Below the pieces are notes generated by a model, which had not been told where the DNA came from, did no database searches, and was given only the letters and a program-made list of their open reading frames with translations. From Symbiodinium sp. CCMP2592 (Eukaryota > Sar > Dinophyceae > Suessiales > Symbiodiniaceae): DNA of 64,000 bases. Of this stretch, positions 3,410-61,206 are shown in pieces (position 1 is the stretch's first letter; the number at the start of each line of letters is the position of its first letter). The position numbers were made by a program, and so were the translations under genes. The stretch is taken from positions 372,001 through 436,000 of the forward strand of contig CAJNDT010004724.1 in the NCBI GenBank assembly GCA_905221615.1, in the 5' to 3' direction.

Positions 3410-4569
3410 GGGGTGGAGAAGCTCTCGCCTCTGGAGGCGCAACCCGGAGACTGCGTGTCGTGTCACGTCGCGTGGCATCTTTCCTCCGTGCAGGTGGACG
3501 AACTCCTCCGTGCAGGGCAGCCTCCGCCTCAGGACCGGGCCACAGGCCGGTGAAAAGTTGGCAAACGTCGCGGATGCGAAGATTGCTTTGAAACACTGAG
3601 GTGCTTGGTCGTGGACGTGCGGGCGGCAGACCGGGCCTCTGGCCACATCAAGGCATTTCAGCGGATCTGTGGTTCGGCGCGTCCCGCCTCTCTCCATCGC
3701 TGCAGGGGTCGGTGCACGAACCCACCAGCTTTCAGGCTCCCCTTTTGAATCGGGCGGGGACGCCAAGAGAGGGAGTGGGTGCTTCGACTGGAAGTCGCGT
3801 TGGACCGCTCGTGACCTCGTGTGAGGTGCCGGAGCTGGTGGCGAAGTTCTCGAAGGAGAAGTTGGTCGCCGGCAGCTCGGGGTCGGTGCTCCACGCACGT
3901 GACTGCACCGCTTAGATTCCATGTGCAAAGCTGCTGAGATCTTCCACTGCCAGTACTCCATGCACCGCGGCCCCCAGCGGGATGCCAAGTCTACTGTCAT
4001 GGGCCATTTGTGGAAGGCAACTGATCGAAGGTCATTGAGCTTCGTTTATCACGCTTCTTCGGTGGATATGCTCTCCCGTGGGTCGAGGTGAGTTTCAGGA
4101 TAGCCGATCTTAGACAGCACGGCAGGTGTGCAAACTGGTATCGCCAGCAGGCGCCGACTTCGCAGCGGGGGCCCTGTTTCCCTTGAGTTACATCCGACTC
4201 TCCCAGATGGCACTAGACAGCTTCTGTCTGCTTCCTTTTTGCGCAGCCTGTTTCTGTGCAAGTGTTTATGTTTTTGCAGAGACAGCAAACAGTAAACACA
4301 GTGCCACCAACGGTATGTGTGCGACCTTTTGTGCGAACATGTTCGACATGACGCTGGTCGTGTTACTGAAGCCGTATGGTTTCGAAACAATGGGTGTGCA
4401 TGCCTTGTGCAGGGCCGTATCGTCGCATCGGCATTAATTAGTACACCACTGTAACCCTCGGCGTCTTTTGTCCTCGGAGTCCTCAACCTGAATCGAGTAG
4501 CTGTTCACGCGAAGGCGAGTGGCCGTGATGGAGGGTGGCTTCCGCGGCTGGGAACGCCAGCGATTGCCG
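3410..4569 (+). CDS. Rhodanese domain, Cdc25/Acr2 type, exon set 1
   Basis: Eight small exons join in phase: 3410-3436 (GVEKLSPLE), 3494-3516 (VDELLRA), 3601-3652 (CLVVDVRAADRASGHIK), 3706-3735 (GSVHEPTSFQ), 3826-3867 (VPELVAKFSKEKLV), 3939-3976 (IFHCQYSMHRGPQ), 4126-4146 (CANWYR) and 4515-4569 (RVAVMEGGFRGWERQRLP). The Cys of the HC-x5-R loop is at 3948-3950 and the Arg at 3966-3968, so the catalytic loop of Cdc25/Acr2 rhodaneses is complete. That family reduces arsenate or dephosphorylates proteins; which applies here cannot be told. All eight inferred introns start with GC, and most acceptors read AG then G. This is the most regular set in the window. Exon borders are inferred from conserved frames and phases, not from a transcript. 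Confidence 0.75.
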
Positions 4570-4738
4570 GCAGGGAGCCTCAGCCTTCGTGAAGGGAAGG
4601 ATGCAGTGCTGCGTCAGAGAGTTTGTGCAGCTGGAATGTCGCAGCTGTCGAGTGGTGAAGCTGGAGTCTTCATCGTTTTCTGTTGGCCCGAGCTTTCAAT
4701 CTGCTCCGCGCGGGGCACGTATTGCCGGCCGACGGCAG

Positions 4739-5878
4739 GTCGTCCACGAGCAACCCATGGATGCCCAAGTGCAGGCTAGTTGCGTCTGTGTGCAACTACT
4801 AGTAGTTGCTGGGGCGGTTGCTGCTGTTGCCTCATGCCAGCGCAAACGCAGTTTGAGGCTTAAGGCTGTTGAAGGTGGAGTGGCATGTGTATCGTTGCAG
4901 TGCGATGTGCTTTGACATGTCCGGCCTCTTTCAGAGCTGGAGTGCCAGGCGAAGGCAGACGTCTATGCGCTCTCGATGGGAAGGCGTGTGGCAGGCAAGC
5001 CTGCTTGGGGGGGCCTCGTCCCGGGTCAATTGGACGACCTCTCTGAATCTCTCTGATGGGTTTGTATCTTCGCACTCTCAATGGGCAGACGTGTTGCTGG
5101 CAGGGGTTCTTGGACGGCTCCTGATTCATTTGCAGTGCCTCGATGTGTTTCTGCTCTGTTGGAAGGCGCTGGCGCGTGAGGCTGCAGCAGTCATGCGTTT
5201 TATAGGATGCTTCGAAGGCAGGCCATTAGCCTAGCTCCATGGACTTTGCACGCTTATTCTCTCGTAGCCAGAGCCGTGGCAGCAGTTCACAGATCTAGTG
5301 TAGCCAGTGGGACATAAGGTGCGGCTTTAACATTGGCAGTGTCAAGCAGCGTACCCAAGGACGAACTTGCTGCAGCTGGCTGTTGTTCGTTGTTCCTGGT
5401 GAAGAACGCCGGGTTGTCTGAACTCGACGAACCTGCTGCGTTGGCAAATGAGCCGAGAGGAGTGCTCTGAATGATGGTACTTAGCACACTACGTTGCACA
5501 GTCACCACCTACGACGGGGCAAACGGCACGAGGTCCCGTTGTGAGTTTCGCGATCCCTTGCGAATGTCGATTCAAGGAGGTTTGGACATTTGGCTTCTAT
5601 CGGTTTTGGACATTGAGTTCTCATGCCCACTTAGTGCCTTTGGCTGCTTTTCCTAATTAATTGACAAGTTTGGCGAGCTCTGTGACCGACTTGAACTCGG
5701 CGGTACACCGTTGTGAAGCCCGCCGCAGCCACCGAGATGGCCAGCCACGTGAAAATCTCAGTGCGGCCCATTGCGCTGAACGGATGCCTGCTGGACTGCA
5801 GCTTGTTCAAAAGAAGCGAGCTAACTGAGCTGAGGTTTCGTACTACTACGTGGCCACGGCGCCGAGGGCCGTGCCTTG
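4739..5878 (+). CDS. Conserved exon-like blocks after rhodanese set 1
   Basis: Blocks that keep a reading frame between diverged units, with changes mostly at third positions: 4739-4774 (VVHEQPMDAQVQ), 4955-4990 (ADVYALSMGRRV), 5360-5443 (DELAAAGCCSLFLVKNAGL and onward), 5737-5772 (MASHVKISVRPI) and 5835-5878 (VSYYYVATAPRAVP). The first two start after AG-G and end before GC, in phase with the last rhodanese exon, so they probably continue the same protein. The donor of the last block is GT here but GC or GA in other units. I recognise no domain. A start at the MAS block is possible but unproven. Confidence 0.45.
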
Positions 5879-7626
5879 GTGCAAAGGATGGTTCATGATG
5901 ACTCATCATCGGGCCCTCTTTCCTGCCGGGCGGGGAAGAGCCTTGCCAGCGTCTCGGCCTCCTCTTTCAGCCTCTTCTCCGTCGTGTGTGAGGTGCCAGC
6001 CGCCGTGACCATGCCGGTGAGGCAGTGCTTGCCTCGGGCCACTTAGGTCCGGGCAGAATTCTGGCGGAGCGGACGGGCTGCCGTCGCAGTTTTTGTGCGG
6101 GACGGTTGAGCAAGGATCTACATCATGCCACGCGCTTCTGTGCCCACGACGGCTGGCTTCTAAGCTGCTGCTTCCAACGAGCCTTATTGACAGCGGAATG
6201 TTGAAGCCTGTCCGTGCGTCTTGCTCAGTCCTTTTGGCCCAATTTTCCCGTCAAGGCTGTGAGTACCCCAGAGAACCTGTGCAAGTGTGCTGGCAGTACA
6301 GTGCCGCTGGATGCTGCTGTGCAGACATGCAGTGTGACGGTTAGGTGCCCACGAGCTGAGCTGTAAATCTGAGGCCACTTTGCCCTCGGCGCGACCGGTG
6401 GCCCCTGCCACCAGGCTCGCTGCTCACCCTTGCGACAGAGTTCTGCTGCAAACTCCCGGCTGAGGGATGACCTGCACGAGTAGGTTGCACGCCCGACTTT
6501 CGCGTTAGCCATGACGTTGTCAGCTCTGCCAGATGCGTTTGACTTTGAAGCAGGTCGTTGGCGCCTGGCCCAGCGAAGATGGACCGCCCTGTCTGCAGCC
6601 TGCATTGCATGCTTCGATCTGCTTCCCGAGTGTCTTCCTCAGGAGCACATGCAGGTCCCCGTGGTCAGGAACTGAGAAAATCCGGCCACTGAAGTTTGAA
6701 GGAGACAGCGCCGGTCCTCCTCGGCCGCGCTAACCTATCCTCTGCGATGTCGAGGTGCAGACGACGACGAAGACCGTCGTCTCTGCGCCCAGGCCTGGCT
6801 CGGTCTCCATGCATCTTGCGGCGTTGGTCGCCTGCACATCTGTGACTCGATAACCTTCGCAGCCCGATGCCTTAATCTGCCTTCGAAGTCGAAGCAGGAG
6901 CTTTGTCCCCGGGCCACCGGCACAGGACTGCGCAACGCCGGTTGAGGGGATCCGTTCGTTTTCGCATGCTTCCATCCGCTTTGTAGTTGAGTTGCTTTTC
7001 CTTGATGCCAGAAGCCAGCCTGTCAGGCGCGTGCGCACACCTCCTCCGTGGCCAGGATCTGAGAAGATCGGGGTCCTCCTCGGCTGCGCCGATGTGTTGT
7101 CACGGCTTTCCTTTTGCAGTCTGCGCGATGTCGAGGTGCAGACCGCGACGAAGACCATCGTGTCTGCACCGAGGCCCGGCTCAAACGACACAATCTACAA
7201 CCTCCATCCATCCTCGTGTGTAGCCTTCCATTGCAGTCGGTGCAATAAAAGGCTGCTGAGGTCTGCGAAACAGACCACATAACGAATATTCCGTCGATTG
7301 TGTTCACTGAGTTCAAGAGGATCAGAGGCAACAACGTACAAGCAACCTGAGAGCCACATTCAGGGTTTGTGCGGATTATTTGAACTCCAACGTCTCAGCT
7401 CTGTGGAGTTTTGCCAGCGACAAGATTTTGATTTCTGTGCCAGATGCGGCTCCAGCTTGCTGAGCACAAATCACCACGGACAGAGCCGACCTGTGCACAG
7501 GCCAGCTCCCACCGATTTGGTGGGTCCGAATTTCGAGGTGCCCCTGCAGAAGGACGGCCACGCCCAGTCTGCAACATCTGATCGAAACATAGTCTTGATG
7601 TGGCCTATATTAGATGTCTCTGGAAG

Positions 7627-9071
7627 GGGGTCGAGAAGCTCTCGCCTGGAGAGGCACAGCTGGAGAGCTACTCGTACTAGGATAGTACACAGGACGACTG
7701 ACAGGAGCGATGGCCGTGTTGATTCTGTCACTTCGCATGGAATTTTGCCTTGAGGTGTGTGAACTCCTCCAGAAAGGACAGCCTGTCTGTCAGGACCCAA
7801 CGGGTGCAAATGCCACAAGGACTCAAAAAGAACACCGAGGTGCTGCCTCATCGACGTGCGCGGGGATGATCGTGCCTCTGGCTACAATGTAGCCAGAGGC
7901 ACGATCATCCCCGCGCACGTCGATGATGCAGCACCTCGGTGTTCTTTGACATTCAGGCCAGAACAGCACGCTTCGCGGAGTTTGTTTCGCACTGGGCGTC
8001 TGGAGAGAGTGAGTGTGTCTCGTCCCTCGATGGCTCCAGGGCTCGGTGCACGAGCCCACCAGTTTCCAAGCACCCCTTTTGAACCGGGCGGGGCCGCCAA
8101 GAGAGGGAGTGAGTGTGGACTGCTCCTGACCGATCTTACTTGTGGAGTGGGATGTGCGTGAGGTGCCGGAGCTGGTGCAGAAGTTCGCCAATGAGAAGCT
8201 GGTGGCCAGCAGCTCAGTGTCCTGTTGGCCGCATGTGGAGGCACGTCTGTCAGTGACTGCGTCCACTCAGAATCCATGTGCAATACGGCTGAGATCTTCC
8301 ATTGCCAGTACTCGCTGCACCGTGGCCCGCAGTGGGATGCCAAGTCTGCTGCGGGGGACCGGGGCCTTCGAATTTTGTGGAACTGGTTCTTGAGGGCTAT
8401 CGAAGGGACTGAAGGTTACAGCCGATCTTGGAAGACTCCGGGTGTGCGAACTGGTACCGCCAGCAGGCACCTCCGACGCAGCTGGGGCCCTGGTCCCCGG
8501 ATGAATTTCGCAGCTGTACTTCCCTCCACATGTCATGTCTTGTGGTGCTGGCTTCCTGCAGGTGTGTTTTCGTTGAACATGCCTGTGCAAGCTGCAGAGT
8601 TGCATGTGGTGACTGGCATGGTGTAGCTGTGCAGCTGCACGCTGTGTCTCTGCGAGTTCTGATTTTGCAAAATGATACGGTGCATCCGAAATGCGCGGTC
8701 AACACTTAATTTGTGCCAGGCCCTTTCTCCAACGAGTGTGTCACACTCATCGTGTGTGTTACGAAACTAGGAAAGGTAAGTTGGCGGAACGTTGCAGGCT
8801 CTTTGACTGACACCATGAGCGTAGTTCAGCACGGTCCCAGAGTCCTCAAGCTGCAGATCCGACAGTGCGCGCTGCGCCTTTTCGGATTGCGCTTCCGGAC
8901 ATGAAGAGAGACTGCATGGTCGTGGTTGAGGAAAGAAGGAAGCATTTTGCCCGGCGCAGCATCGTATCGTACGATTACCTTCTCGCGCCGACGGAGTCCT
9001 CGCTGCTCACGGGAAGGCGCGTGGCCGTCCTCGAGGGAGGCTTCCGCGGCTGGGAAGGACAGCGTCTTCCG
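7627..9071 (+). pseudogene. Damaged rhodanese exon set 2
   Basis: The same eight exons can be followed: 7627-7653, 7755-7777, 7840 onward (CCLIDVRGDDRASGY), 8040-8069 (GSVHEPTSFQ), 8163-8204 (VPELVQKFANEKLV), 8294-8331 (IFHCQYSLHRGPQ, Cys codon 8303-8305), 8452-8472 (CANWYR) and 9017-9071 (RVAVLEGGFRGWEGQRLP). Three faults make this copy look dead: the third exon runs into an inverted duplication at 7887; the donor after the second exon is AC instead of GC; and the acceptor before CANWYR reads GG instead of AG. The donor after the catalytic exon is GT here. Confidence 0.65.
7827..7947. repeat. 121-bp near-perfect palindrome in a rhodanese exon
   Basis: Two 60-base arms around the single base 7887, with one mismatch (C at left against A at right in the TGCC/TGCA region). 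The left arm is the normal third rhodanese exon with its 5' flank. The right arm is the same sequence reversed. After the right arm the normal sequence resumes with ACATTCAGGCC, as in other units where GGCTACATTCAGG is uninterrupted. This is an inverted duplication inserted at the turn point, typical of a snap-back copying event. Confidence 0.9.
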
Positions 9072-9599
9072 GCAGGGAGCCTCAGCTTTCGTGGATGGAA
9101 GGATGCAGTGCTGCTTCAGGGAGGTCGCAGTAGGCGTCGCAGCATGTTGCAGAAAGCTGAAGCTTAAGGCTTGAGGGTTTCTTGATTTCTGTCGGCCCGA
9201 GTTTTGCAGGGTGGTCTGCACAGAGTCGGACATGTGGACCTGTGCGCTGGCCAACCGCAGGTCGTCCGCGAGAAACTCATGGATGCCTATGGGCAGGCTG
9301 GGTACCCATCTGCAACTAGTCGCTGTTTTCGCATGCCAGCACAAACACAGTTGAAGGATGTTGAAGACTTGAGGATGTTGAAGCTGGAGTGGCATGCGCA
9401 TGCATGCGCATTGCTGCAGTGCGATGCTCTTTGGCATGTCCGGCCTGTTTTGGAAGCCAGACGGCCAGGCGAAGGCAGACGTGTACGCGCTCTCGATGGG
9501 CAGGCGTGTGGCAGGCAAGGCTGCTTGGAGGAGGGTCTCGAGTCGGTTCAATTCAACGACCTTTGATGGGCTGGCTGTGCTTTGCCGAAGGTGCTGGAG

Positions 9600-9660
9600 C
9601 GTGAGGCTGCGTTCTATCAGAATATCAGATCCTGATATTCTGATAGAACGCAGCCTCACG
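9600..9660. repeat. 61-bp perfect inverted duplication
   Basis: Arms 9600-9628 and 9632-9660 are exact reverse complements around ATC. The matching place in the last unit (about 61750-61795) has one copy of the left arm and then AAGATCAGATGAATCGTAGG, so the right arm replaced a few bases here. It is one of three such structures in the window. Confidence 0.9.
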
Positions 9661-10542
9661 TAGGCGGTCCAGTGTTGGCCAGTGCTGGTTGCTGAGACGT
9701 GGCAAAGCGGACGTTATGCTTTGTTCAAGCAGAAAGCAGTAGACTCGACGGAGAAACGTGTTTGCCGAAGTGGGCCCGCAGAGATGCGGCTGCAGTGCCC
9801 AGCGAATCGATTTTTTTCGCTAGCCAGAACTCTTGGCAGCAGTTTAGATGTGGCAAGTCGGACATGAGGTGTAGCTTTGACATAGGCAGTGTCGAGCAAC
9901 ATACCGAAGGGCGATCTTGCTGCGGTGGGCTGTTGTTGATTGTTCCCGGCGAATAACGCTGGGTTCTCTGAGCTCGACGAACCCGCTGTCCTTGCCAACG
10001 AGCCGAAAAAACTAGTCCTGTTCAGGGAGCATTGAGCGCCGTGCCATGATAGACAGGGGTGAGGCAATGCATTTCGTGAGTGGAAGCCATGACTCCCTGA
10101 AGCCGGAAAGCCTTTGGCCTAAGCTCAGCGCCCCACGCATCCACGTGGAAGAGCTGGAAAGCAACGCAAACTGTAGCACGAAGCTTTGGCAGACTGTACG
10201 TGGTAGCAAAGCCCAGAAGCAGTCAACGTGCGTTTTTCTCCAGATGGCTAGCACGGTGAAGAGCCCAGAGTGGCCAACTGCTTGAGAGAATGAAATGGGT
10301 AGTTGCCTGCTCAAAACAGCACGCTGAGGTTTCGTACTACTACGCGCGCGCGGCTCCAAGGGCCGTGCCTTGGCGCAACGATTGATTCATGCCGGTCTCG
10401 GCTCTGCATCTCTGCATCGTGTGTGAGGCGCCAGCCGTCGTGACGACGCCAGTGATACAGTGCCTGCCTCGGGAAGTGTCGCGGAGTGGACTGTCACTGT
10501 CTGCCTTCTTTGGGAGAGGTCTTGCAGCTTCTGCTTGTTTTG

Positions 10543-10596
<54 letters not shown>
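10543..10596 (+). repeat. (GT)n(GA)n tract at the left end of the insertion
   Basis: A short GT run passes into about 42 bases of GA. To its left is array DNA that matches 1130-1745; to its right begins element sequence with no match in the array. The GA run is clearly longer than at the empty site (1753-1763), so it grew by slippage or was partly supplied by the insertion. Confidence 0.85.
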
Positions 10597-10598
<2 letters not shown>

Positions 10599-10646
10599 AC
10601 ACAGACAGGTCAGGGCATGCACAGCAAGAGGGGAACTGTTGCTTGA

Positions 10647-13118
10647 GTGGTTCGAAGAACAGGGGTGTCATTTTCCAGAACAGCAGTTGCACGAGCCGAG
10701 TCACTACCCCTACGACTCGACTACGTGCTGGCAAAGAAACTACTGTGCGACCCCGGCAAAGTTCTTGCTCAGAGGGATATTGCCACTTCAGACCATGAGC
10801 CGATCTCCGTCCCGTTGACCCAGATCCGAGTCCACGAAGGCAACATCGGGGGGAAGGCAGCACCATGGTCCTCTCGGACACTGCGACCTGGGGCTGTGGT
10901 CGATGCTATCTTGGACCAGCAGGCTGTAACCGGGGGCGACCCCGTCACCCAAATCCAGAAAGTCGCTGTGGCCATCAGCAAGCCCGGCAAGAACAAACAA
11001 CCATTCAAAGAGTCAGATGCCCTTCGAGCCCTTCGCCGACATGCCCTTCACACCGGGCCAGGGGAAGAACGGCGACGACTCTGGAAAGCAGCGCGGATCA
11101 TGCACCAATCCGAGCATCGAAAATGGCAACAACTGGCGATGCAACGTGTTGCCGAACTGGACTGGGGGATGAAGAAGGCCCTCGTGGAGCAGAGCCGTGA
11201 TCACTCCTGGGAGCTCAACCTCACCGACAGCGACCAGTGGAAGCAAGAGCTCCGGGACCACTTCGAAAAGATCTTCCACCGACAAAAACAAGTGGTAGTC
11301 ACTGCGAAAATCCGGGGGATCATGAAAAAGCTCGAGTACAGATGCAAGAACACGAAATGGATACCCTTCACCTTGGAAGACCTCAATGAAGTCAAAGTGA
11401 AGTGGAAAAATGGGCGATCTTGTGGACCCGACCAGGTGTCACATGAAGCCCTCAAGGCCATGCTCCCCCACCCGATTTGGGGGAACCGCCTACTCGCATT
11501 GTTCAATGACATGCTGTACACATGCCGCCTGGTCGAGAGCATCGAAGCAGGAGCCACTATCCTGTTGGCGAAAACCTCCCAGCCACAGAACTGGGGAGAA
11601 ACAAGACCTATAACTTTGAGTTCAGTCCTCCTCAAGACTTTCGGCCAACTCCTCTTGCAACGAGCCGGGGAAACGATCCAAGCCCCCGCCAGACTGCAAT
11701 GGTGCAGGCGGGGGAGGCAAGGGATCGAACTGATCCTCATCCTCCGACGACTAGCACGAGTTGCACGTGACTGGGGCCTCGAGTTCTACATTGCGAAATT
11801 GGACATCCGCAAGGCTTTCGATTCCGTTTTCCAGGAAAGTCTCGCCGAGCATGTCTGCCAAGTAGTGGGGGAAGATGCCAACCTACCCTGGGAAGCTCGA
11901 GCCTGGGTTGCTGTACTACATGCACAACATCTTTGTGTCCAGGTTGCCGGGGAAAGCATCCCGATCCAACAAAGCAATGGAGTTCGGCAAGGTGCACCAG
12001 AAAGCCCCGTTGCTTTCGGCTCTGTGGTTGCCAACGACCTCAATGCTGCCATCGGGGAAGCGAGGAGTTCTAAACCAACGACAGACACAGCCCCCCCCGA
12101 AGACGGGGGAAGCTACATGGACGACAACTACATTTGGTCAACATGCAGAAAACACTTTCAGCACATGCTTACCGCGCTGGGGGATAAGCTGCCCTGCCGC
12201 GGCCTCTACCTGCACCCTGGCAAGACGGACATCATCACAACCCGGGAGAAGGAAGTTCATTTCCAGGTCGCGGGGGAGAGAGTGGCAACCAAAGGGCCCA
12301 AGCACATCTTTCATGTGCTAGGGAGTCCCCTCTCTTTCCAAGGGGGAACCGCCATGTTGTTGGCGGAAGCTCAAAGCCGAGCCCGCAAAGCTTTCTGGGC
12401 ACACCGCGACTCCTTCACTTCGGCGGCTACCTTCAGGCAAAAGCTCCAGATACATGTCGTACTTGTGCGTCAGAGTGCATTTTGGGCCTGCCAGACATGG
12501 CCTTGCCACAGCAGCCTATTGCGGGGGATCAACACAATTCAGTTGTCCCACATCCGGGTCATGCTTGGTCTTCGTCGGCAACCATGTGAAGAATGGGCCA
12601 CATGGAACAAAAGAAGCTTACGACGAAGCCGACTCGCACTATTTCACTGCGGGGGAACCCGATGGTCAACTTTTGTGCTGTCGCAAATCTGGACCGCCAT
12701 CGGGCACGTCAGCAGAGGAGATCCGATCGGGGGGAAAATCCTCCAATGGCACAGCCTACAGTGGTGGCAAGACCAAAAGGACCGGGGGATCCCAGTTCAG
12801 CATGGCCATCGTTTCAATGCTTACATGGACATAGACAGGCAATTGAGTGACACAGTGGGTAAGAATTGGTTTGCCATTGCACAAGACAGAGAAGTATGGG
12901 GAGAGTGGGAGGCGGTCTTCATTGCGAAGTATGATGTCCCATGGAGTAGTGGCAAACAGTACAGCATCAGCAACCTAGCACCGGGGAACCATCAGACAGA
13001 CGACAAGGCATTCCTACAAAGTCTTACTGACACTACCAGCAAGAGAGAGCACTCAACAAAGCAACAGAAGAGACGGACCAAAACAAGACAACTGAATAAC
13101 AGACTCTTGGTATCCTGA
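10647..13118 (+). CDS. Non-LTR retrotransposon reverse transcriptase (5'-truncated)
   Basis: 823 codons without a stop. The first codon is GTG after an in-frame TGA, so this is not the true start. Residues 24-52 match the end of an APE-type endonuclease: LDYVLA at 24-29 and the SDHEP motif at 48-52. Upstream the endonuclease frame continues in another phase back to the GA tract (GELLLEWFEEQG region, about 10630-10710), so one base was gained or lost near 10700-10722. The reverse transcriptase runs from about 240 to 520: motif A LDIRKAFD at 385-392 (Asp386), motif B NGVRQGAPESP from 444, and motif C YMDD at 490-493 with both metal-binding Asp residues. Residues 550-823 form the thumb and a C-terminal part without a visible zinc knuckle or RNase H. 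The polymerase core looks intact, but this copy lacks most of its endonuclease. Confidence 0.9.
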   Translation: MVRRTGVSFSRTAVARAESLPLRLDYVLAKKLLCDPGKVLAQRDIATSDHEPISVPLTQIRVHEGNIGGKAAPWSSRTLRPGAVVDAILDQQAVTGGDPVTQIQKVAVAISKPGKNKQPFKESDALRALRRHALHTGPGEERRRLWKAARIMHQSEHRKWQQLAMQRVAELDWGMKKALVEQSRDHSWELNLTDSDQWKQELRDHFEKIFHRQKQVVVTAKIRGIMKKLEYRCKNTKWIPFTLEDLNEVKVKWKNGRSCGPDQVSHEALKAMLPHPIWGNRLLALFNDMLYTCRLVESIEAGATILLAKTSQPQNWGETRPITLSSVLLKTFGQLLLQRAGETIQAPARLQWCRRGRQGIELILILRRLARVARDWGLEFYIAKLDIRKAFDSVFQESLAEHVCQVVGEDANLPWEARAWVAVLHAQHLCVQVAGESIPIQQSNGVRQGAPESPVAFGSVVANDLNAAIGEARSSKPTTDTAPPEDGGSYMDDNYIWSTCRKHFQHMLTALGDKLPCRGLYLHPGKTDIITTREKEVHFQVAGERVATKGPKHIFHVLGSPLSFQGGTAMLLAEAQSRARKAFWAHRDSFTSAATFRQKLQIHVVLVRQSAFWACQTWPCHSSLLRGINTIQLSHIRVMLGLRRQPCEEWATWNKRSLRRSRLALFHCGGTRWSTFVLSQIWTAIGHVSRGDPIGGKILQWHSLQWWQDQKDRGIPVQHGHRFNAYMDIDRQLSDTVGKNWFAIAQDREVWGEWEAVFIAKYDVPWSSGKQYSISNLAPGNHQTDDKAFLQSLTDTTSKREHSTKQQKRRTKTRQLNNRLLVS

Positions 13119-13431
13119 CGGCAGAAAGGGGGAACACCCTCAAGCAATCACTGCATGTTCGTGAATGACCTGATTGCCTCTGACCAGTGACAGCGACATG
13201 TGGTGTGCAGTGCGAAGTTTTTCCTTGCTTTCTGTCAACATGGATATGACGATCCTGAATCTGCTCGACTACATCCTTACTGCTCAAACATGCGACATGC
13301 CACGACTACATTTTCGCAACTCGCACCTTGGTACTCGATCCTAGACGACTTGGCTTTCTGCACAGGAAAGCTGACAAAGCAATAAAGCAAGACAGCAGAC
13401 AGCAACTTTGCACAGCAGAGATCTCGACGAG
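13119..13431 (+). other. Spacer between the two proteins of element 1
   Basis: About 310 bases without a gene. It holds one GGGGGA run just after the reverse transcriptase stop. I see no ribosome-entry or splice signal that I can name. How the downstream protein is translated is open. Confidence 0.4.
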
Positions 13432-15006
13432 ATGCTGCGCACCAAACTCCTCCTAGCTTTGGTGCTCGCAGTGCCCTACGGGCACGTGTCTACTAAGGCA
13501 CAAGCCCCTGGCACAGACCCAACACGCACAGCACCGGCAGAAGCAGGCAGTACAGACGGCAATCCACCCGCGGCAGAATCCACAACAAGGGGACATCACA
13601 GTCCCGTACCGGCCCACCCCCATACAGCAGCAGACGGGGGACACAACTCAGGCCCCAACACAGCAACAGCACCGTGGAGCAACCACGAGTGGGCACAACA
13701 ACACGCCCCCACCCAGCTGGCATGGGCAGCGACACATCTCACTGCTAACGGCTATGTGACAACATGGGGCGGCTGGAGCACGACACAGGGCGGGGGAAAT
13801 GGCCCTCAACCGCCCCCACAACAGCCACTATACTTCCAACCTCCAGCATACCAAATCGGCGTACAGGCATGCGGCTCACAACAAGCACCACTACCACAAC
13901 AACCTCCACCTCGACAACCACCCTCCGCACAAGCCATGACAACTGGCCCTTACCAGCCACCACCACAAGCTCAGCCCCAGCAGACCCACGCAAGACCACA
14001 AGCCAGAGACATCCACGGCTATCATCCCACGTACGACTGGGACTTTGATCCCTGGAACAACCCAGAGGACGACCCCCCAACAACAGCAACACAGGAGACG
14101 AGCGCGGCAACGAACCCGACGGGGGACCACCCACGTGGTACACCCTTACCACCGACCTTCACCGCCACCTCTGCAGCTGCCCAACAACCACAGCCACAAC
14201 AGGTGCAACAAAGCACAAGCCAACCACAGACGACTTGCTGGCTACCACCACCCGGGACAGGGCCACTGCCAAACATGTGGCAATCAGAATACACCAACTG
14301 GATCAGTACAGGCCGCATCCCCAACACATACCTGAAGAGAGTTTGCACACCAGGCCCGGACACAGAGGGGCACGAGCCCCCCCAGAACTCCACGGCAGCT
14401 GAAGCCACACCACAAGCGCCCCCGGGGCAAACTGAAGAAGCTGCTGAGACAGCAAGTATACCCATCAACACTTCTTGCAGCGAGCCCCCACCACCACTAC
14501 AGCCACTCCAACCACAAGCAGATCCACTTCCAAGAGCCAGACAATCGGGAGAGCTCCCCGAGTTCGTCCAACCACGACCACCACCAAGCCCCGGCAGAAA
14601 CACCACCGACTCCCACGCAGACCCACAGGACACCGCGACAGCAGACCAATCCGGCGAGGAAGAGCTGCACGACACCGCTACTGGAGACACAGGCCTACCG
14701 CCTTGGGAACATCCGGAATGGGGGATTGACCCCCCCCCCCCCCTCCCGAAACACACAAACACGGGGGGCCGGACACGGCTCGCAACGACTGGGCAACAAA
14801 GAAGGCAAACATGCTTTCAAACAGCGGGTCTGGGCGGGGGAGCAACTCGTAAGACCCGACCCCCAGCCTCAGCACGGCCCCGGTTGGGGCATACTCGCGA
14901 GTCGAGCACAAAGCTCCACCGACCAACACTCGCAACAGGCAACCTCCACGCGGGGGACCAAAAAGGATTCAGCAGCGGAACAACAGTTCCAGGAGGCCAT
15001 GGATAA
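13432..15006 (+). CDS. Pro/Gln/Thr-rich protein of element 1, N-terminal part
   Basis: The open frame reaches back to 13408, but the first ATG is at 13432 and gives MLRTKLLLALVLAVPYG, which looks like a signal peptide or a membrane anchor. After it come about 400 residues rich in Pro, Gln, Thr, His and Ala with little fixed structure. At 14730-14743 the DNA is a run of 14 C; there the conserved style of sequence passes to the overlapping frame that continues to 17590. The last residues of this frame (about 14744-15006) are therefore probably out of frame. I do not recognise the family. Its place downstream of the reverse transcriptase is unusual, since the gag-like protein of LINEs normally comes first. 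Confidence 0.6.
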   Translation: MLRTKLLLALVLAVPYGHVSTKAQAPGTDPTRTAPAEAGSTDGNPPAAESTTRGHHSPVPAHPHTAADGGHNSGPNTATAPWSNHEWAQQHAPTQLAWAATHLTANGYVTTWGGWSTTQGGGNGPQPPPQQPLYFQPPAYQIGVQACGSQQAPLPQQPPPRQPPSAQAMTTGPYQPPPQAQPQQTHARPQARDIHGYHPTYDWDFDPWNNPEDDPPTTATQETSAATNPTGDHPRGTPLPPTFTATSAAAQQPQPQQVQQSTSQPQTTCWLPPPGTGPLPNMWQSEYTNWISTGRIPNTYLKRVCTPGPDTEGHEPPQNSTAAEATPQAPPGQTEEAAETASIPINTSCSEPPPPLQPLQPQADPLPRARQSGELPEFVQPRPPPSPGRNTTDSHADPQDTATADQSGEEELHDTATGDTGLPPWEHPEWGIDPPPPLPKHTNTGGRTRLATTGQQRRQTCFQTAGLGGGATRKTRPPASARPRLGHTRESSTKLHRPTLATGNLHAGDQKGFSSGTTVPGGHG

Positions 15007-17590: not shown

Positions 17591-18805
17591 GCTGGTGAGC
17601 GGGGGATTTAAAACAAGAAGCCGATTGTCACGGCGGCTCTCTCTATTTCCGCTTCGGGGCCCCGTACCAGCACGGGGGAACGAAGCTCATGAGTCGGGCC
17701 CAAATACATTTCTAATACTTGCATACTGTCCTTTAACAAGCTGTTGTCCTCTCCTGTTTCCATCCTGCATAAAGAACAAAAAAGGGGCCTGACAGTATCC
17801 GCCTAGCCACAAGCTGCTGCCATGCTGAACCTAATTTCCGGAAACCTTGCCAACTGCCGCTGCCACTACATTGTGCCTGTAGTGCTGCCACAAGCTGTTG
17901 CTTTGTCATTGCGATGACGGGGGATACAGATTGGATCTCACTGTACATTTCTGGCCTTTGACCCCCTAGGATCCTGTACACTCTGCAATGTTAGGTCCCC
18001 TATAGCCTTTTCTTTGCCTACGAGAGTAATGATCCGATCTTGCACCACGATAATCCTCCGCGCAAACTTTGGACAGAACCCCGAACGATCTTCTAGAGTC
18101 ACTTTTCATGCTATGCGGTTTTGCTTGTATGGCATGTGATTGAAATCTTTGGGGGAAATTGTCCACCATCTCGCTGAGCGGGTTATACACATTCTCCTTG
18201 GCCTTGACCAATATTTGTAGGGTATATGGAAGTAATCACTCCGGGGGTATCTTCCTCCTCGCAGTTGTGATTAAATATACTTGTTGCATTCCTCTGCACT
18301 GTTTTTCCATACGGGGGAAGATTACCAAAGAGAGTGATTGTCCGGCCCTTAGTCTTTTGATCCTGTATGTCATTGGTTGCCAAGCTATCTTGCCATATGC
18401 GGCCAGGAGAACTGTGATGTGTTTCAAGGTATGGTAGACACGAAGGGGAAACTCTGTCAGAACTCAGGTATCGCCTGTAAAGCCCGTAGGGATAGCTGTG
18501 CCATTGTTTCTCGCAATACAATCCCCTTGTCTGCCATAAAATGAAAAATGCACTTTAGGTTGATGCACCGTCAATACAATCCCCAGAAATACCTCTTGTA
18601 TGGAATACATATTTTTGCCTCTTATATGTTCGGGGGATTCGGCATGTGCTGTGTGTCTTGAATGAACAGGGGGACATTGTAAATCGACATCGTATACTTT
18701 ATGGCTATAGCCTTTTACAATGTTCACTGTTCTTTTTCACCCCCCGTGTCCGTCAACACGACGGGTGGGCATGCTGCCCGGGGGCGTTGACCCGTCCCCA
18801 TGCCC

Positions 18806-18807
<2 letters not shown>
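17591..18807 (+). other. 3' non-coding part of element 1
   Basis: About 1.2 kb, richer in A and T than the coding part, without a supported gene on either strand. GGGGGA or close variants still occur near 17600, 17675, 17918, 18150, 18241, 18312, 18630 and 18668, all on the + strand. The last 60 bases can pair partly with themselves (ACGGGTGGGCATG with ACCCGT and CATGCCC), a possible 3' structure for reverse transcriptase binding. The end joins directly to GA at 18808. Confidence 0.5.
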
Positions 18808-18859
<52 letters not shown>

Positions 18860-18866
18860 GAGAGAG
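18808..18866 (+). repeat. (GA)n tract between the two elements
   Basis: About 59 bases of GA with one T interruption. It separates the 3' end of element 1 from the truncated 5' end of element 2. The simplest reading is that both elements were inserted in the same microsatellite one after the other, element 1 upstream of element 2. Confidence 0.85.
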
Positions 18867-32614: not shown

Positions 32615-32677
32615 GCCCAGTCTGCAACATCTGATTGAAACATAGTCTTGATGTGGCCTATAATATGTCTCTGCAAG

Positions 32678-54199: not shown

Positions 54200-56947
54200 G
54201 CGGGGAGTCTCAGCCTTCGTGAAAGGAAGGATGCAGTGATGCTTCGGGGAGTTTGTGTATGTCGTTGGTGCGAGTTTTTCAATTTGTCGGACATGTAAAC
54301 GGCTCTGCTGGTCGACTGCAGGTCCTCCGCGAGCAACCTATGGATGCAGAAAGCCAGGCTGGGTGAACCAAGTCGTTTGTGACGCCTGCACCAGCGCAAA
54401 TGCAGTTTAAGGCTTGAGGCTGTTGAAAGTGGAGTGACATAGTGCTTTGGTATGTCTGGGCCTGTCCGGCTCAGAGCGCCAGGGCAAGGCAGATATCTAT
54501 GCGCTCTCAATGGGCAGGCGCCTGGCAGGCAGGGTTCTTGCAGCGGGGTGGGCCTCGCCTCACGAGACACTGCTCTGGAGTGCTATGCTTCGATGTGTTT
54601 TTATGCGTTCACTTGGCAGGTGCTGGTGCGTGAGGCCGCGCAGTGGCCGATAGTCTTTCTGATACTAGTATCCTCCGTGAGTGGGCCAGCGCTGGCAAGT
54701 ACTGGTAGCCAAGACTTGGGCCATGTGGACTGTGGGTGTACGGACTTGCAGAATACGGAACACGGAAGCCGAAGGGGGCAGGCAGGGTCCGGCGAATCGC
54801 GCTGGGCATGGAGAATCGAACAGTCCCATCTTCTAGGCTGCAGAGAGATTGGGCTTTCGAAGGACATCCCTGGCTTCCAACTTACATAGCCTCAGGCGAT
54901 TTTTTTCTCGTAGCCAGACCCCACGGCAGCAGTTCAGATGTGGCAAGTCGGACATGGCACTGTCAGGCAGCATAGCGAAGGACGATCTTGCTGTGGTGGG
55001 CTGTTGTTGCTTGTTCCCGGCGAATAACGCTGGGTTCTCTCAGCTCGACGACCCCGCTGTCTTTGCCAATGAGCCGAAAAGACTGGTCCTGCAGGGGTGA
55101 GGCAGTGCAACTCGCGAGTGGAAGCCGCCACTCTATAAAGCCGAGCAGGGCTTGGCCTCAGCCGAGTGCCACTGTGCTCCTCATGACAAGGCTTTCCGCA
55201 TGATCCGTAGATGCTGTATGCATCCCCGGGCGCCTCACACATCCACGTCGAACATCTGGAAAGCCTTTGGCCTAAGCTCAGTGCCACCGAAAGATCTGGG
55301 CGCCCCATGCATCCACGTGGAAGAGCTGGAAAGCGACGCAAACTGTAGCACGAAGCTTTGGCAGTGGTAGCAAAGCCCAGAAGCAGTCAACGTGTGTTTT
55401 TTTCCAGATGGCTAGCACGGTGAAGAGCCCAGAGTGGTCAACTGCTTGAGAGAGTGAAATGGTTAGTTGCTTGCTCAAGAAAAGCACGCTGAGGTTTCGT
55501 ACTACTACGCGCGCGCGGCTCCAAGGGCCGTGCCTTGGCGCAGCGAATGATTCATGCCGCTCTCGGCTCTGCATCTCTGCATCGTGTGTGAGGCGCCAGC
55601 CGTCGTGACGACGCCAGTGAGGCAGTGCCTGCCTCGTGGAAGTCTGTGACGGTCTGCCTTCTTTGGGAGAGGTCGCAGCTTTTTTCTATCCTTGTGGTGT
55701 GCTTGTGTGTGAGAGAGAACTTGTGAGAGTGTTGAGCGAGGATCTACGTCGTGCCACGAGCCGTGGTGGCGGCGACACCGCCGGCGGGCCACCAGGCTGA
55801 CCGGGCTGGCGTTTGCGCTGCTGCTTCCTGCGGAAATGGAATCTTGAATCCTGTTCTGTTCGTGCATCTTGCTCAGTCCTTCTGGCCCAATTTTCCCGTC
55901 AAGGCTGTGTGTACCCCAGAGAGTGTGGCGCTACGGCGCTGCTGTGCGGGCATGCAGTGTGACGGTTTGCCGTCCACCACTGAGCGCTGAAGTCTGAGGC
56001 CAATGTGCCCTTGACACGACCCGTGGCTGCCGCCACCAGGCTCGCAGCTCACGGCTGAGGGATAACCGGAGTAGGGTGCAAGCCCGACTTTTGATCATGT
56101 TCTCGCGGTCATGGGGCTTTGCCTGGGCGCTAATCGTTCCCATGCGTTTGACTCTGAAGCAGGTCGCTAGCACCTGGCGCAGCGAAGACGGACCGCCCTA
56201 TCTGCGGTCGCCTGCGTTGCTTGCTTCAATCTGCTTCAAGAGTGTGTTCCTCAGGAGCACATGCAGGTCCCCGTGGCCAGGAACCGAGAAAATCCGGCCA
56301 CTGAAGCGAGACAGCGCCGGTCCTCCTCGGCCGCGCTAACCTATCCTCTGCGATGTCGAGGTGCAGACGACGACGAAGACCGTCGTCTCTGCACCCAGGC
56401 CTGGCTCGGTCTCCATGCATCTTGCGGCGTTGGCGCGGCAGTGTTGACATCGCCTGCACATCTGTGACTCGATAACCTTTGCAGCCCGATGCCTTAATCT
56501 GCCTTCGAAGTCGAAGCAGGAGCTTTGTCCCTGGGCCACCGGCACAGGACTGCGCAACGGCGGTTGAGGGGATCCGTCCGTTTCCGATTTCTGCTTCCCG
56601 GTTGAGTTCCTCGTCTTATTCGTCTTGGTGCCACGACCAGACCGCCAGGCGAAGGCAGACGTGTACGCGCTCTCGATGGGCAGGCATGTGGCAGGCAAGG
56701 CTTCGTCTCGGTTCAATTCAACAATCTTTGATGGGCTCGCGGTGCTTCGACATGTTTCGTGCCCAGATGGCAGGTGCTGGGGCGTGAGGCTGCAGCAGTC
56801 CTGCGTTCCTATATGTCTTGTAGATGGATTGAAGAATTTGCCAGTGCTGGTGGCTGAGATGTGGCCAAGCGGACATCAGTTGCTCAAGACGGCTGCACTG
56901 CCCGGCGAATCGCGCTGGGCATTGGTCATCGAATAGTCCCATCTAGG

Positions 56948-57077: not shown

Positions 57078-59830
57078 CTCAGATGTGGCAAGTCGGATGT
57101 GAGGTGTAGTCTTGACATTGGCAGTGTCAAGCAGCATTCCCAAGGGCGAACTTGCTGGGGCGGGCTGTTTACTTGGTGTTGCCGGTGAAGAACGCTGGGT
57201 TCTCTGAGAACTCGACTATCCCGCTGCGAAGGAAAACGAGCCGAAAGGAGTGGTTCTGACGGACGGTTGGCCCAGTCTCTAATGGTACCCACCTGCGACG
57301 TTAAGCGGCATAAGGTCCCGTTTCGAGTTTCGCGATCCCGTGCGAGTGGCGATTCAACATGCTGTGGCACTTTGTGGAACTGGGTGTCAACCTGTTTCCC
57401 ATTGTGCTGTTTCAGTGGTCCCTTCGAGTAAACGGGATCTTCAAGGGGGAGGTCGTTAATCATCGGCTTTGCAGGCCGGTGGATGGTCCGTGCATGAGCT
57501 GGATAATAGAAGAGATATCTCTCGGAGCTTCTGGCCAGGACGCCGGCCCACTTCGTGCATTCTGATGGAAGCGTTTGCACAGCTGCCGAGCTGTGTGATC
57601 GAGAGCGGCCCTCGCTCCGATAATTTCAGTGCTAGCACGAGTCTGACTTAGGGGGAGGTGAACCGGAACGTTGAGGGCGTGCCATGGTAAAGAGGCTTGG
57701 GGCAATCTAGTCTAGTTCCAGAAGCCGAGCGTCGTTTGCCGAGTTGCCGCTGTGCTCCTCAGAACATGGCATTCCGCATGATCCATACCGACGAGGGTGC
57801 GAACAGATCTGGGCGCCGCACACATCCACGTCAAACAGCTGGAAAGCAATGCGAACTGCAGCAAGAAGCATTGCTTAGCCTTAACTAGACCTGGTAGCAA
57901 TGGCTCGCAACGTGAAGGGCCCAGACCGGCCGATATTTGCACCAAGTGCTAGGGGAACGAATGCCTGCGGCATGCTCAAGAATGTGCGCTGAGGTTCCAT
58001 ACTACTACGCGCCCACGGCGCCGATGGCCGTGCCTTGGTGCAACGGATGATTCACGAAGCATCGGGACCTCCTCCTCCTCTGCCGGGCTGAAGGGCCTTG
58101 CCAGTCTCGCTTCTCCTCTTTCGCTTCTTCTCCGTCGTGTGGGAGGCGCCGGCTGTCATGACCATGCCTATGAGGCAGTGCTTGCCTCGGGCCAGGGCAG
58201 AAATCTCGCGGAGTCGACTTGTGGGAGATGTCGCAGTTTTTGCGAGTGAGGGTTGCGCAAGGATCTATGTCATGCCTCTCACTGTTGTGCCGCCGACACC
58301 AGCGCCCTACACGGCCCACCTGGCTGGCTTTGAGCTGATGCTCCTAGCGGGCATGTTTTGACAGCCCACTCTGAAAATCTTGTCCGTACATCTTGGTCAG
58401 TCCTTCTGGCCCCATTTTCCGGCCCAGCCTGTGCATGCCCCAGAGAGCGTGCAAGTTTGCTGGCATTCTGGCGCGGCTGATGTGCGGACATGCAGCCTGA
58501 CGGGCAGGTGCTCATGATACCATTGAGCTCAGAGCTGAAATCTGAGGTTAATGTGCCCCTGGCGCGATCAGTGGCCCCGCAGCTTACCCCTGTGGCACAG
58601 TGCCTCGGCAATCTCCCGGCTACGGAATGAATTGCTTTGTCGAGAAGGGTGCAAGCCCGATCTGTCATGCTCTTGCATTGGACATGTCTCGTCATGACAT
58701 GCCATAACATTGCCTGGGTGGTAGCTAGCCATCATTCGAGAACTGTGACAGATTTTGATGTGTTTGACTTTGAAGCAGGTCGCTAGCACCTGGCGCAGCG
58801 AAGATGGACCGCCCTATCTGCGGTCGCCTGCGTTGCATGCTTCGATCTGCTTCCCGAGTGTCTTCCTCAGGAGCACATGCAGGTCCGCGTGGCCAGGAAC
58901 CGAGAAAATCCGGCCACTGAAGTTTGAAGGAGACAGCGCCGGTCCTCCTCGGCCGCGCTAACATATCCTCTGCGATGTCGAGGTGCAGACGACGACGAAG
59001 ACCGTCGTCTCTGCACCCAGGCCTGGCTCGGTCTCCATGCATCTTGCGGCGTTGGCGCGGCAGTGTTGACATCGCCTGCACATCTGTGACTCGATAACCT
59101 TTGCAGCCCGATGCCTTAATCTGCCTTCGAAGTCGAAGCAGGAGCTTTGTCCCTGGGCCACCGGCACAGGACTGCGCAACGCCGGTTGAGGGGATCCGTT
59201 CGTTTTCTTTGCAGTTGAGTTGCTTTTCTTGATGCCAGAAGCAAGCCTGTCAGGCGCGTGCGCACACCTCCTCCGTGGCCAGGATCTGAGAAGATCGGGG
59301 TCCTCCTCGGCTGCGCCGATGTGTTGTCACGGCTTTCCTTTTGCAGTCTGCGCGACGTCGAGGTGCAGACCGCGACGAAAACCATCGTGTCTGCACCGAG
59401 GCCCGGCTCGAAAGCACGATCTACAACCTGCATCCATCCTCGTGTGTAGCCTTTTATTGCATTCGCTAAAAAAACTTCTGCTAGGGATCCCGAGCGGACC
59501 ACGTAACTGATATTCCGTCGATTATGATGTATGATCACTGAGTGCAAGAGGATCCACGGCAACAAAGTACAAGCACATTCAGGGTTTGCGGATTCCGTCT
59601 CAGCTCTGTGGAATTTTTGCCAGCGACCAGATCTTGATTTCTGTGCCAGATGCGGCTCCATCTTGCTGAGCACAAGTCACCACGGACAGAGCCGACCTGT
59701 GCACAGGCCAGCTCCCACCGGTTTGGTGGGTCCGAATTTCGAGGTGCCCCTGCAGGAGGACGGCCACGCCCAGTCTGAAACATCTGATTGAAGCATAGTC
59801 TTGATGTGGCCTATAATATGTCTCTGCAAG

Positions 59831-61206
59831 GGGGTCGAGAAGCTCTCGCCTGGAGAGGCACAGCTGGAGAGCTACTCGTACTAGGATAGTACACAGGGCG
59901 ACTGGCAGGAGCGATGGCCGTGTTGATGCTGTCACATCGCATGGTATCTCGCCTTGAGGTGTGTGAACTCCTCCAGAAAGGACAGCCTGTCTCTCAGGAA
60001 CCAGTGGGTGCAAATGCACAAGGACTCACAAAGAACACTGAGGTGCTGCCTCATCGATGTGCGCGCGGATGATCGAGCCTCTGGCTACATTGAGGCCAGA
60101 ACAGCACGCTTCGCGGAGTTTGTGTCTGGAGGGAGTCCGTGTGTCTCGTCCCTCGACGGCTCCAGGGCGCGGTGCACGAACCCACCAGCTTCCAGGCACC
60201 CCTTTTGAACCGGGCGCGGCCGCCAAGAGAGGGAGTGAGTGTGGACTGCTCCTGACCGATCTTATTTGTGGAGTGGGATGTGCGTGAGGTGCCGGAGCTG
60301 GTGCAGAAGTTCGGCAAGGAGAAGCTGGTGGCCGGCAGCTCAGTGTCCCGTTGGCCGCATGTGGAGGCACGTCTGTCAGTGACTGCGTCCACTCAGAATC
60401 CATGTGCAATACGGCTGAGATCTTCCATTGCCAGTACTCGCTGCACCGTGGCCCGCAGTGGGATCCCAAGTCTGCTGCGGGGGACCGGGGCCTTCGAATT
60501 TTGTGGAACTGGTTCTTGAGGGCTATCGAAGGGACTGAAGGTTACAGCCGATCTTGGAAGACTCCAGGTGTGCGAACTGGTACCGCCAGCAGGCACCTCC
60601 GACGCAGCTGGGGCCCTGGTCCCCGGATGAATTTCGCAGCTGTACTTCCCTCCACGTCATGTCTTGTGGTGCTGGCTTCCTGCAGGTGTGTTTTCGTTGA
60701 ACATGTCGGTGCAGAGTTGCATGTGGTGACTGGCATGGTGTAGCTGTGCAGCTGCACGCTGTGTCTCTGCGAGTTCTGATTTTGCAAAATGATACGGTGC
60801 ATCCGAAATGCACGGTCAACACTTAAGTTGTGTCAGGCCTTTTCTCCAACGAGTGTGTCACACTCATGGTGTGTTACGAAACTAGGAAAGGAAAGCTGTC
60901 GGAACGTTGCAGGCTCTTTGACACCATGAACGTAGTTCAGCACGATCCCAGAGTCTCAGTCCTCAAGCTCCAGATCCGACGGTGCGCGCTGCGCCTTTTC
61001 GGATTGCGCTTCCGGACATGAAGAGAGACTGGCATGGTCGTGGTTGAGGAAGGAAGGAAGCATTTTGCCCGTCGCAGCATCGTATCGTACGATTACCTTC
61101 TCGCGCCGACGGAGTCCTCGATTTGATGTGAGAGTGGCTGTTCACGGGAAGGCGCGTGGCCGTCCTCGAGGGAGGCTTCCGCGGCTGGGAAGGACAGCGT
61201 CTTCCG
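59831..61206 (+). CDS. Rhodanese exon set 10
   Basis: Exons 59831-59857 (GVEKLSPGE), 59959-59981 (VCELLQK), 60043-60094 (CLIDVRADDRASGYIE), 60166-60195 (GAVHEPTSFQ), 60289-60330 (VPELVQKFGKEKLV), 60420-60457 (IFHCQYSLHRGPQ; Cys codon 60429-60431), 60568-60588 (CANWYR) and 61152-61206 (RVAVLEGGFRGWEGQRLP). It is close to set 2 but without the palindrome, and the acceptor before CANWYR is AG here, so it shows what set 2 looked like before it decayed. The donor after the catalytic exon is GT; that after the second exon is the doubtful AC. Confidence 0.62.

What the first reader, a model, noticed from the sequence alone, without database searches (positions are those of the whole stretch)
3410..61206. 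Tandem rhodanese (Cdc25/Acr2-like) genes made of 21-55-base exons
Seen: in ten places the same eight short blocks occur in order and, joined at AG and GC borders, give a complete rhodanese domain with the HC-x5-R loop, RGPQ-CANWYR and LEGGFRGW. In sets 1, 4, 6 and 8 all phases and splice dinucleotides agree. Established: Cdc25/Acr2 rhodaneses use this loop for arsenate reduction or phosphatase activity. Inference: the 10-kb repeats are not satellite DNA but an array of one highly split gene that simple frame finding misses.
Basis: partly seen in the sequence, partly recalled or inferred. Interest (0 to 1): 0.85.

Follow-up and report, generated by a model that had tools for sequence, protein, structure and literature searches.

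The report
Tandem array of finely split rhodanese genes
A stretch of algal (Symbiodinium-type dinoflagellate) DNA that looks like 10-kb repeats is really a head-to-tail row of similar enzyme genes, each cut into about 24 tiny exons; the genes have close relatives in databases, so this is an unusually finely split example of a known dinoflagellate habit.

Summary
Confirmed and extended. The eight blocks occur in order in ten places on the + strand. They are part of a 24-exon gene: in 10 of 10 units an ATG-to-stop frame of 279-285 codons joins without internal stop. Of 230 donors 156 are GC, 41 GT, 32 GA, 1 GG; 228 of 230 acceptors are AG. Mean exon 35.6 nt, median intron 97 nt. One of the 240 exons (unit 3, exon 8) is a placeholder in a damaged copy. 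Three joined products tested are rhodaneses (PF00581, 41.6-49.6 bits) with the Cdc25/ACR2-type HC-x5-R loop. Full-length relatives without introns exist: two ~1.07-1.08-kb contigs and an MMETSP transcript. ACR2.1/ACR2.2 proteins of Symbiodinium CCMP2592 are 95% identical to units 1, 2 and 10. dN/dS of the rhodanese part is 0.18-0.30 in nine pairs of diverged units. Copies are mosaics. Tandem arrays, GC/GT/GA donors and intron-rich genes are each known in this group; the combination (ten full units plus three partial, exons a third of the usual size, mosaic copies) is unusual. Arsenate-reductase or phosphatase activity is inferred, not shown.

The parts
1442..5179 (+). gene unit 1, ATG to stop, 24 exons, 285 aa
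   Evidence: 95.4% identical to P0026 (ACR2.2, CCMP2592) over its whole length
5737..9604 (+). gene unit 2, 279 aa; acceptor of exon g is GG (8442); palindrome in exon c, which supplies that exon's GC donor in the model
   Evidence: 95.2% identical to P0005 over 208 columns
10244..24613 (+). gene unit 3, 285-codon model split by a ~10.5-kb insertion in intron 3; exon 8 truncated at a junction (placeholder in the model), acceptor of exon f AA (23286)
25308..30184 (+). gene unit 4 (L type), 284 aa
30798..34597 (+). gene unit 5 (S type), 284 aa; intron between exons 7 and 8 only 24 nt
35292..40199 (+). gene unit 6 (L type), 284 aa
40813..44616 (+). gene unit 7 (S type), 284 aa
45311..50218 (+). 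gene unit 8 (L type), 284 aa
50832..54633 (+). gene unit 9 (S type), 284 aa
57900..61756 (+). gene unit 10, 281 aa
   Evidence: 95.7% identical to P0005 (ACR2.1, CCMP2592) over its C-terminal 208 columns
1..767 (+). 3' end of a further unit (unit 0): exon h truncated and fused to exon i, then exons j and k
55408..56694 (+). partial unit 9b: exons 1-10, then exon j; rhodanese exons missing
62484..64000 (+). 5' part of a further unit (unit 11), exons 2-12 recognised; cut by the window end
35292..35303 (+). unit 6 exon 1 (E1), start codon, MASR
35373..35408 (+). unit 6 exon 2 (E2)
35506..35537 (+). unit 6 exon 3 (E3)
35621..35672 (+). unit 6 exon 4 (E4); donor chosen by comparison with relatives
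35755..35784 (+). unit 6 exon 5 (E5)
35903..35943 (+). unit 6 exon 6 (labelled E7 in calls)
36164..36191 (+). unit 6 exon 7 (E8), first copy of an internally repeated three-exon module
36255..36275 (+). unit 6 exon 8 (E9)
36368..36405 (+). unit 6 exon 9 (E10), VQTATKTVVSAPR
36477..36504 (+). unit 6 exon 10 (E11), second copy of the module begins
37398..37418 (+). unit 6 exon 11 (E12)
37536..37573 (+). unit 6 exon 12 (E13), VQATTKAFASAPR
38047..38101 (+). unit 6 exon 13 (z), GLVGPNLEVPLQK
38171..38197 (+). unit 6 exon 14 (a), start of rhodanese domain
38337..38362 (+). unit 6 exon 15 (b)
38446..38497 (+). unit 6 exon 16 (c), LIDVRGDDRASGHI
38583..38630 (+). unit 6 exon 17 (d)
38722..38763 (+). 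unit 6 exon 18 (e)
38881..38918 (+). unit 6 exon 19 (f), catalytic loop HCQYSLHRGPQ
39121..39159 (+). unit 6 exon 20 (g), CANWYR
39590..39644 (+). unit 6 exon 21 (h), LEGGFRGW
39852..39887 (+). unit 6 exon 22 (i)
40059..40104 (+). unit 6 exon 23 (j)
40186..40199 (+). unit 6 exon 24 (k), ends AGA-stop

Best explanation
The window lies inside a head-to-tail array of one nuclear gene of a Symbiodinium-type dinoflagellate. Each full unit of 3.7-4.9 kb from start to stop (unit 3 is longer because of an insertion) is a separate gene of 24 exons of 12-55 nt. Its introns, median 97 nt, begin with GC, GT or GA and end with AG. Spliced, it encodes a protein of about 280 aa: a low-complexity N-terminal half with an internally repeated three-exon module, then one rhodanese domain of the Cdc25/ACR2 class with an HC-x5-R loop. 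The array grows by DNA-level duplication, of which three nearly identical 10-kb L+S dimers are the newest step, and it is mixed by recombination between copies, which leaves mosaic genes and a few broken ones. Shown: gene structure, homology, purifying selection between diverged copies, mosaicism. Inferred: that the copies in this window are transcribed, the growth by duplication and mixing by recombination as processes, and that the enzyme reduces arsenate or removes phosphate.
For: Ten of ten units read ATG to stop with no internal stop. Donor +1 is G in 230 of 230; among five diverged unit types donor +1, acceptor -1 and the first exon base are invariant at 23 of 23 introns, acceptor -2 at 22, donor +2 at 19, other nearby positions at 4-18. 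G at donor +5 in 170 of 230 and G as first exon base in 209 of 230. PF00581 47.9/41.6/49.6 bits against a cut-off of 22.2 for three products. P0024 (284 aa, contig 1067 bp), P0025 (285 aa, 1084 bp), P0026 (285 aa) and the MMETSP transcript P0028 (348 aa, with extra N-terminal residues) align from first to last residue. dN/dS in the rhodanese part 0.18-0.30 for nine pairs of diverged units. Mosaic: unit 5 is closest to unit 1 over exons 1-6, to units 2 or 10 over exon 7 and exons 9-16, to unit 4 over exons 17-18. Catalytic loop aligned without gap to 1t3k and 2j6p, one residue longer than in YgaP.
Confidence: 0.93

Rival explanations
1. The copies are mostly pseudogenes: one or two active genes elsewhere, and this array is a decaying duplication.
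For: Unit 0 has a fused, truncated h exon; 9b lacks the rhodanese exons; unit 3 carries a ~10.5-kb insertion, a truncated exon 8 and an AA acceptor; unit 2 has a GG acceptor and palindromes.
Against: In 8 of 10 full units (1 and 4-10) no defect in frame or splice dinucleotides was found; dN/dS 0.18-0.30 in the rhodanese part between diverged units; annotated proteins 95% identical to units 1, 2 and 10 exist in CCMP2592.
Confidence: 0.12
2. The 10-kb near-identical dimers (units 4-9) are an assembly artefact: one dimer written several times.
For: Coding sequences of units 5, 7 and 9 show no substitution and units 4 and 6 differ by one base in exon 4; intron mismatch between them is 0 to 0.6%; three perfect fold-back palindromes may point to imperfect assembly.
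Against: The copies are not all identical: intron mismatch 0.3% (5-7, 7-9), 0.4% (4-8), 0.6% (5-9), though 0.0% with 1% gap columns for 4-6. Units 1, 2, 3 and 10 are clearly distinct, so an array remains even if the dimers are collapsed.
Confidence: 0.1
3. The domain is a sulfur-transferring rhodanese and not a Cdc25/ACR2-class enzyme.
Against: C-x5-R loop followed by GP, gap-free against the Arabidopsis and Leishmania chains and one residue longer than in YgaP; best sequence match in the PDB is 1t3k.
Confidence: 0.25
4. Satellite DNA with chance coding resemblance.
For: 10-kb period, about 97-98% identity between dimers; the exons are too short to stand out as open frames.
Against: Controls and ten open joins; relatives.
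Confidence: 0.01

Closest known systems
ACR2.1 / ACR2.2 proteins of Symbiodinium sp. CCMP2592 (P0005, P0026)
   Different: Other units are 74-87% identical; names are database labels; P0005 and P0050 are partial models; no paper on them was listed
Plant, yeast and Leishmania ACR2-type reductases and Cdc25 phosphatases (1t3k, 3fs5, 2j6p, 1c25)
   Same: Rhodanese fold and HC-x5-R loop
   Different: Added ~140-residue low-complexity N-terminal half; activity untested; Arabidopsis ACR2 knockout left arsenic redox state unchanged (abstract of PMC3412857)
Dinoflagellate tandem gene arrays (Amphidinium, Polarella)
   Same: Head-to-tail same-strand copies with short spacers
   Different: Reported as mostly intron-poor or single-exon (passages of PMC2488372, and PMC7245778); here 23 introns per copy. 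psbO (9 introns) is named there as a tandem exception (PMC2488372 passages)
Symbiodinium microadriaticum gene structure
   Same: Predominant donors GC/GT/GA; 21.8 exons per gene (table passage of PMC5177918)
   Different: Mean exon there 109.5 bp, here 35.6 nt; mean intron there 504.7 bp, here median 97 nt

Membership tests
Rhodanese-like domain (PF00581) | scores above Pfam's gathering cut-off | tested here: met
   3 of 3 joined products tested (units 1, 5, 4): 47.9, 41.6, 49.6 bits, cut-off 22.2
Cdc25/ACR2 class of rhodanese enzymes | active-site loop with five residues between catalytic Cys and Arg | tested here: met
   HCQYS(L/M)HRGPQ in 10 of 10 units; gap-free against 1t3k and 2j6p, one residue longer than YgaP. 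That loop length separates the classes is recalled knowledge
Cdc25/ACR2 class of rhodanese enzymes | arsenate reductase or phosphatase activity | not testable with these tools
   needs a bench assay
Cdc25/ACR2 class of rhodanese enzymes | fold closer to this class than to sulfurtransferases | tested here: inconclusive
Symbiodinium ACR2.1/ACR2.2 family | collinear homology, N-terminal half included | tested here: met
   unit 1 95.4% over 285 columns of P0026; units 2 and 10 95% over 208 columns of P0005
Dinoflagellate tandem gene array | several complete same-strand copies head to tail | tested here: met
   10 full-length units, one partial unit inside and one cut unit at each end, all on +
Dinoflagellate tandem gene array | low intron density, as reported for Amphidinium and Polarella arrays | tested here: not met
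   23 introns per copy
mRNA-derived (retroposed) dinoflagellate duplicates | relict spliced-leader sequence and no introns | tested here: not met
   no match to the 15-base leader core with up to 3 mismatches in the window; introns present in all ten units
Satellite DNA | non-coding repeat | tested here: not met

The most novel reading that the evidence does not exclude
The array is a recombination-driven mixer: because each gene is cut into two dozen small exons with alignable introns, nearly all in phase 0 or 2, unequal exchange between neighbours keeps making in-frame combinations of N-terminal modules and rhodanese domains, including shortened forms such as 9b, and selection keeps the variety.
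Probability: 0.15. Interest if true: 0.65.

Novelty: new member of a known kind. Interest (0 to 1): 0.42.

Why it matters
It shows that what reads as a 10-kb tandem repeat in a dinoflagellate genome can be an array of genes whose exons average 36 nt, too small for six-frame reading; several database models of its relatives are fragmentary. It runs against the reported tendency of dinoflagellate tandem arrays to be intron-poor. Its copies, from near-identical to about 37% mismatched in introns and mosaic by segment, are good material for studying splice-site choice (GC donors in 156 of 230 introns) and recombination between copies.

Tried and rejected
Satellite reading: rejected. One multi-rhodanese polyprotein: rejected, every full unit has its own ATG and stop and the full-length relatives begin and end at the same points. 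First exon limits for d (30 nt) and h (104 nt) and for E4 and E8 were replaced after relatives were seen. Spliced-leader relic: none (leader letters recalled, later seen in a passage of PMC8045281). Foldseek and VIA-align did not decide between sulfurtransferase and Cdc25/ACR2. NCBIfam gave only hits far below cut-off. A paper on intron sites in a dinoflagellate tandem array (Mendez 2015) was seen only as a reference-list title and is not held. The dN/dS used the exon 4 limits, before the last revision, and was not repeated. Mosaic breakpoints were compared by exon-plus-intron segment only, not mapped to the base. Collection scans (search for related loci, the DNA search on collections, search_dna_similar) and the fetch from genomes were not used.

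The search of the window's own genome did not complete, so total copy number, array ends and species name are open.
Full report
WHAT WAS CHECKED. The window is 53-61% GC in 2-kb steps and holds units repeated with a 10-kb period: 21121-45227 matches 31110-55259 at 98.2%, and other pairs among the 90 of 176 alignments printed range from about 65 to 97%. A substitution-only scan with the eight block sequences found all eight, in order and on the + strand, in ten places beginning at 3410, 7627, 22678, 28187, 32678, 38171, 42693, 48190, 52712 and 59831; it also gave weaker stray hits to single blocks, two of them on the - strand. No eleventh complete set was found.

JOINING. With AG acceptors and GC donors (GT after exon f in units 2 and 10) the blocks join in phase in all ten sets; the only splice-site failures in this part are GG before exon g in unit 2 and AA before exon f in unit 3. 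Three joined products (units 1, 5, 4) score 47.9, 41.6 and 49.6 bits on PF00581, cut-off 22.2. The best solved relative by sequence is Arabidopsis 1t3k (E 2.2e-8; its entry shows Ser at the catalytic Cys), then Leishmania 2j6p; their catalytic loops align without gaps, while E. coli YgaP needs a one-residue gap.

RELATIVES. A search with the 119-aa product returned 23 proteins, led by a 172-aa protein on a 1080-bp contig and by ACR2.1/ACR2.2 proteins of several Symbiodinium. P0001, P0002, P0004 and P0005 agree through every join from exon a to the end; they lengthen exon d (SFQAPLLNR), shorten h, and give the end VVREKLMDAHGQ - AKADVYALSMGRRVAG - AGA stop, which lies in the window as three more exons. 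A second search with the full product returned 41 proteins. P0024 (284 aa on 1067 bp) and P0025 (285 aa on 1084 bp) are open from first to last residue on contigs far too short for the introns seen here, and P0028 (348 aa, extra N-terminal residues) is named as an MMETSP transcript. I infer that these three represent spliced RNA; the record type of P0024 and P0025 was not shown. Against this, several automated models of relatives differ from mine: P0006 and P0007 skip exons, P0040 and P0050 read on through intron 1, P0035, P0036, P0045 and P0046 run into introns, P0003 differs within exon d. P0026 (285 aa) is 95.4% identical to unit 1 over its whole length; P0005 is 95.2% and 95.7% identical to units 2 and 10 over 208 columns; other units are 74-87% identical to these two.

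FULL GENE MODEL. Thirteen upstream exons were picked by eye from conservation between units and settled with the relatives. In all ten units 24 exons join into one frame, ATG to stop, 279-285 aa, no internal stop. Exon 4 has several in-phase donors; its end was set from relatives, and exon 7 was set to 28 nt by analogy with exon 10, so frame and splice site are not independent there. Over 230 introns the donors are GC 156, GT 41, GA 32, GG 1; acceptors AG 228, GG 1, AA 1. The GG donor belongs to exon 8 of unit 3, a placeholder (52% match) at a junction that removed part of that exon, so that exon and its two introns should be left out of strict counts. Exons: 12-55 nt, mean 35.6. Introns: median 97, shortest 24 (S units, exons 7-8, open in frame, so possibly retained), longest 10,691 (unit 3, with a reverse-transcriptase ORF). 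Among five diverged unit types (1, 2, 4, 5, 10), donor +1, acceptor -1 and the first exon base are invariant at 23 of 23 introns, acceptor -2 at 22 and donor +2 at 19; positions further into exon or intron reach 4-18. This supports the borders apart from the frame.

CONTROLS. A profile was built from eight relatives (P0009-P0016) that are 53-61% identical to the query. Real a-h joins of the ten units: 179.7-186.7 bits. Best of 1200 permuted joins 151.3, of 1200 joins with shifted borders 123.7, of 1200 joins of random AG...G(C/T/A) segments 39.7, of 10 unspliced units 53.2, each taken over three frames.

SELECTION AND MIXING. Fifteen pairs of units were compared (with the exon 4 limits). For the nine pairs run among units 1, 2, 4, 5 and 10, dN/dS is 0.18-0.30 in the rhodanese part and 0.33-0.49 in the N-terminal half; intron mismatch is 9-37%. 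The other six pairs are near-identical or recombinant: 5-7, 5-9, 7-9 and 4-6 show no substitution (units 4 and 6 differ by one base in the longer exon 4 of the last model), 4-8 has five changes, 3-5 has 0.07 and 0.80. Segment-wise comparison of five types shows mosaics: unit 5 is 84-99% identical to unit 1 over exons 1-6, 90-100% to units 2 or 10 over exon 7 and exons 9-16 (exon 8 is 76% at best), 97% and 89% to unit 4 at exons 17-18, and at best 59-80% like any other from exon 19 on; unit 10 is 87-99% like unit 2 from exon 7 to the end and at best 76-84% like any type before. Segments are exon plus following intron; breakpoints were not mapped to the base.

WHAT IS KNOWN. For S. microadriaticum a table gives donors GC/GT/GA, 21.8 exons per gene, mean exon 109.5 bp, mean intron 504.7 bp (passage of PMC5177918). 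Largest tandem arrays in S. tridacnidorum CCMP2592 and S. natans are reported as 10 and 13 copies (section 9, part 1 of 2, of PMC8045281). Highly expressed tandem genes are described as intron-poor in Amphidinium (passages of PMC2488372) and single-exon in Polarella (passages of PMC7245778). Three searches aimed at this gene family gave: no paper holding Symbiodinium, arsenate reductase and rhodanese together; no ACR2 in the 20 of 801 papers listed; one paper with the word dinoflagellate among the 20 of 168 listed. Only listings were seen and only open-licence PubMed Central papers are covered, so absence from print is not shown. Each feature thus has a precedent; the combination of ten full and three partial units, 23 introns per copy and 36-nt exons is what stands out.

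LIMITS. No RNA of this organism, no species name (Symbiodinium near CCMP2592 is inferred from protein identity), no total copy number: the own-genome search did not complete.

Noticed in passing
7848-7926, 9600-9660, 56947-57078: Three perfect fold-back palindromes with arms of 39, 29 and 62 bp (scan for arms of 14 or more and loops up to 8). The first lies in exon c of unit 2 and supplies its GC donor in the model, the second overlaps unit 2's stop codon. Template-switch events or assembly artefacts.
   Followed up: partly
about 10597-21120: About 10.5 kb inserted next to a (GA)n run in intron 3 of unit 3; ORF 10647-13118 on + has RVT_1 (45.5 bits), three further long + strand ORFs (532, 954, 637 aa) have no Pfam match at E 0.01.
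   Followed up: partly
31659-31682 and the same place in units 7 and 9: The intron between exons 7 and 8 of S units is only 24 nt and open in frame; it may be read through.
   Followed up: partly
1088-1205 and equivalents in other spacers: A block of about 110 nt, some 320-440 nt after the stop codon, looks well conserved between diverged units (by eye); UTR, regulatory or further exon.
   Followed up: no
about 36600-37400 and equivalents in units 4 and 8: L units carry about 0.75 kb extra in intron 10, absent from the other types aligned.
   Followed up: no
55408-56694: Partial unit 9b goes from exon 10 straight to exon j, both at phase 0 borders, so a short protein without rhodanese domain could still be read in frame.
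   Followed up: partly
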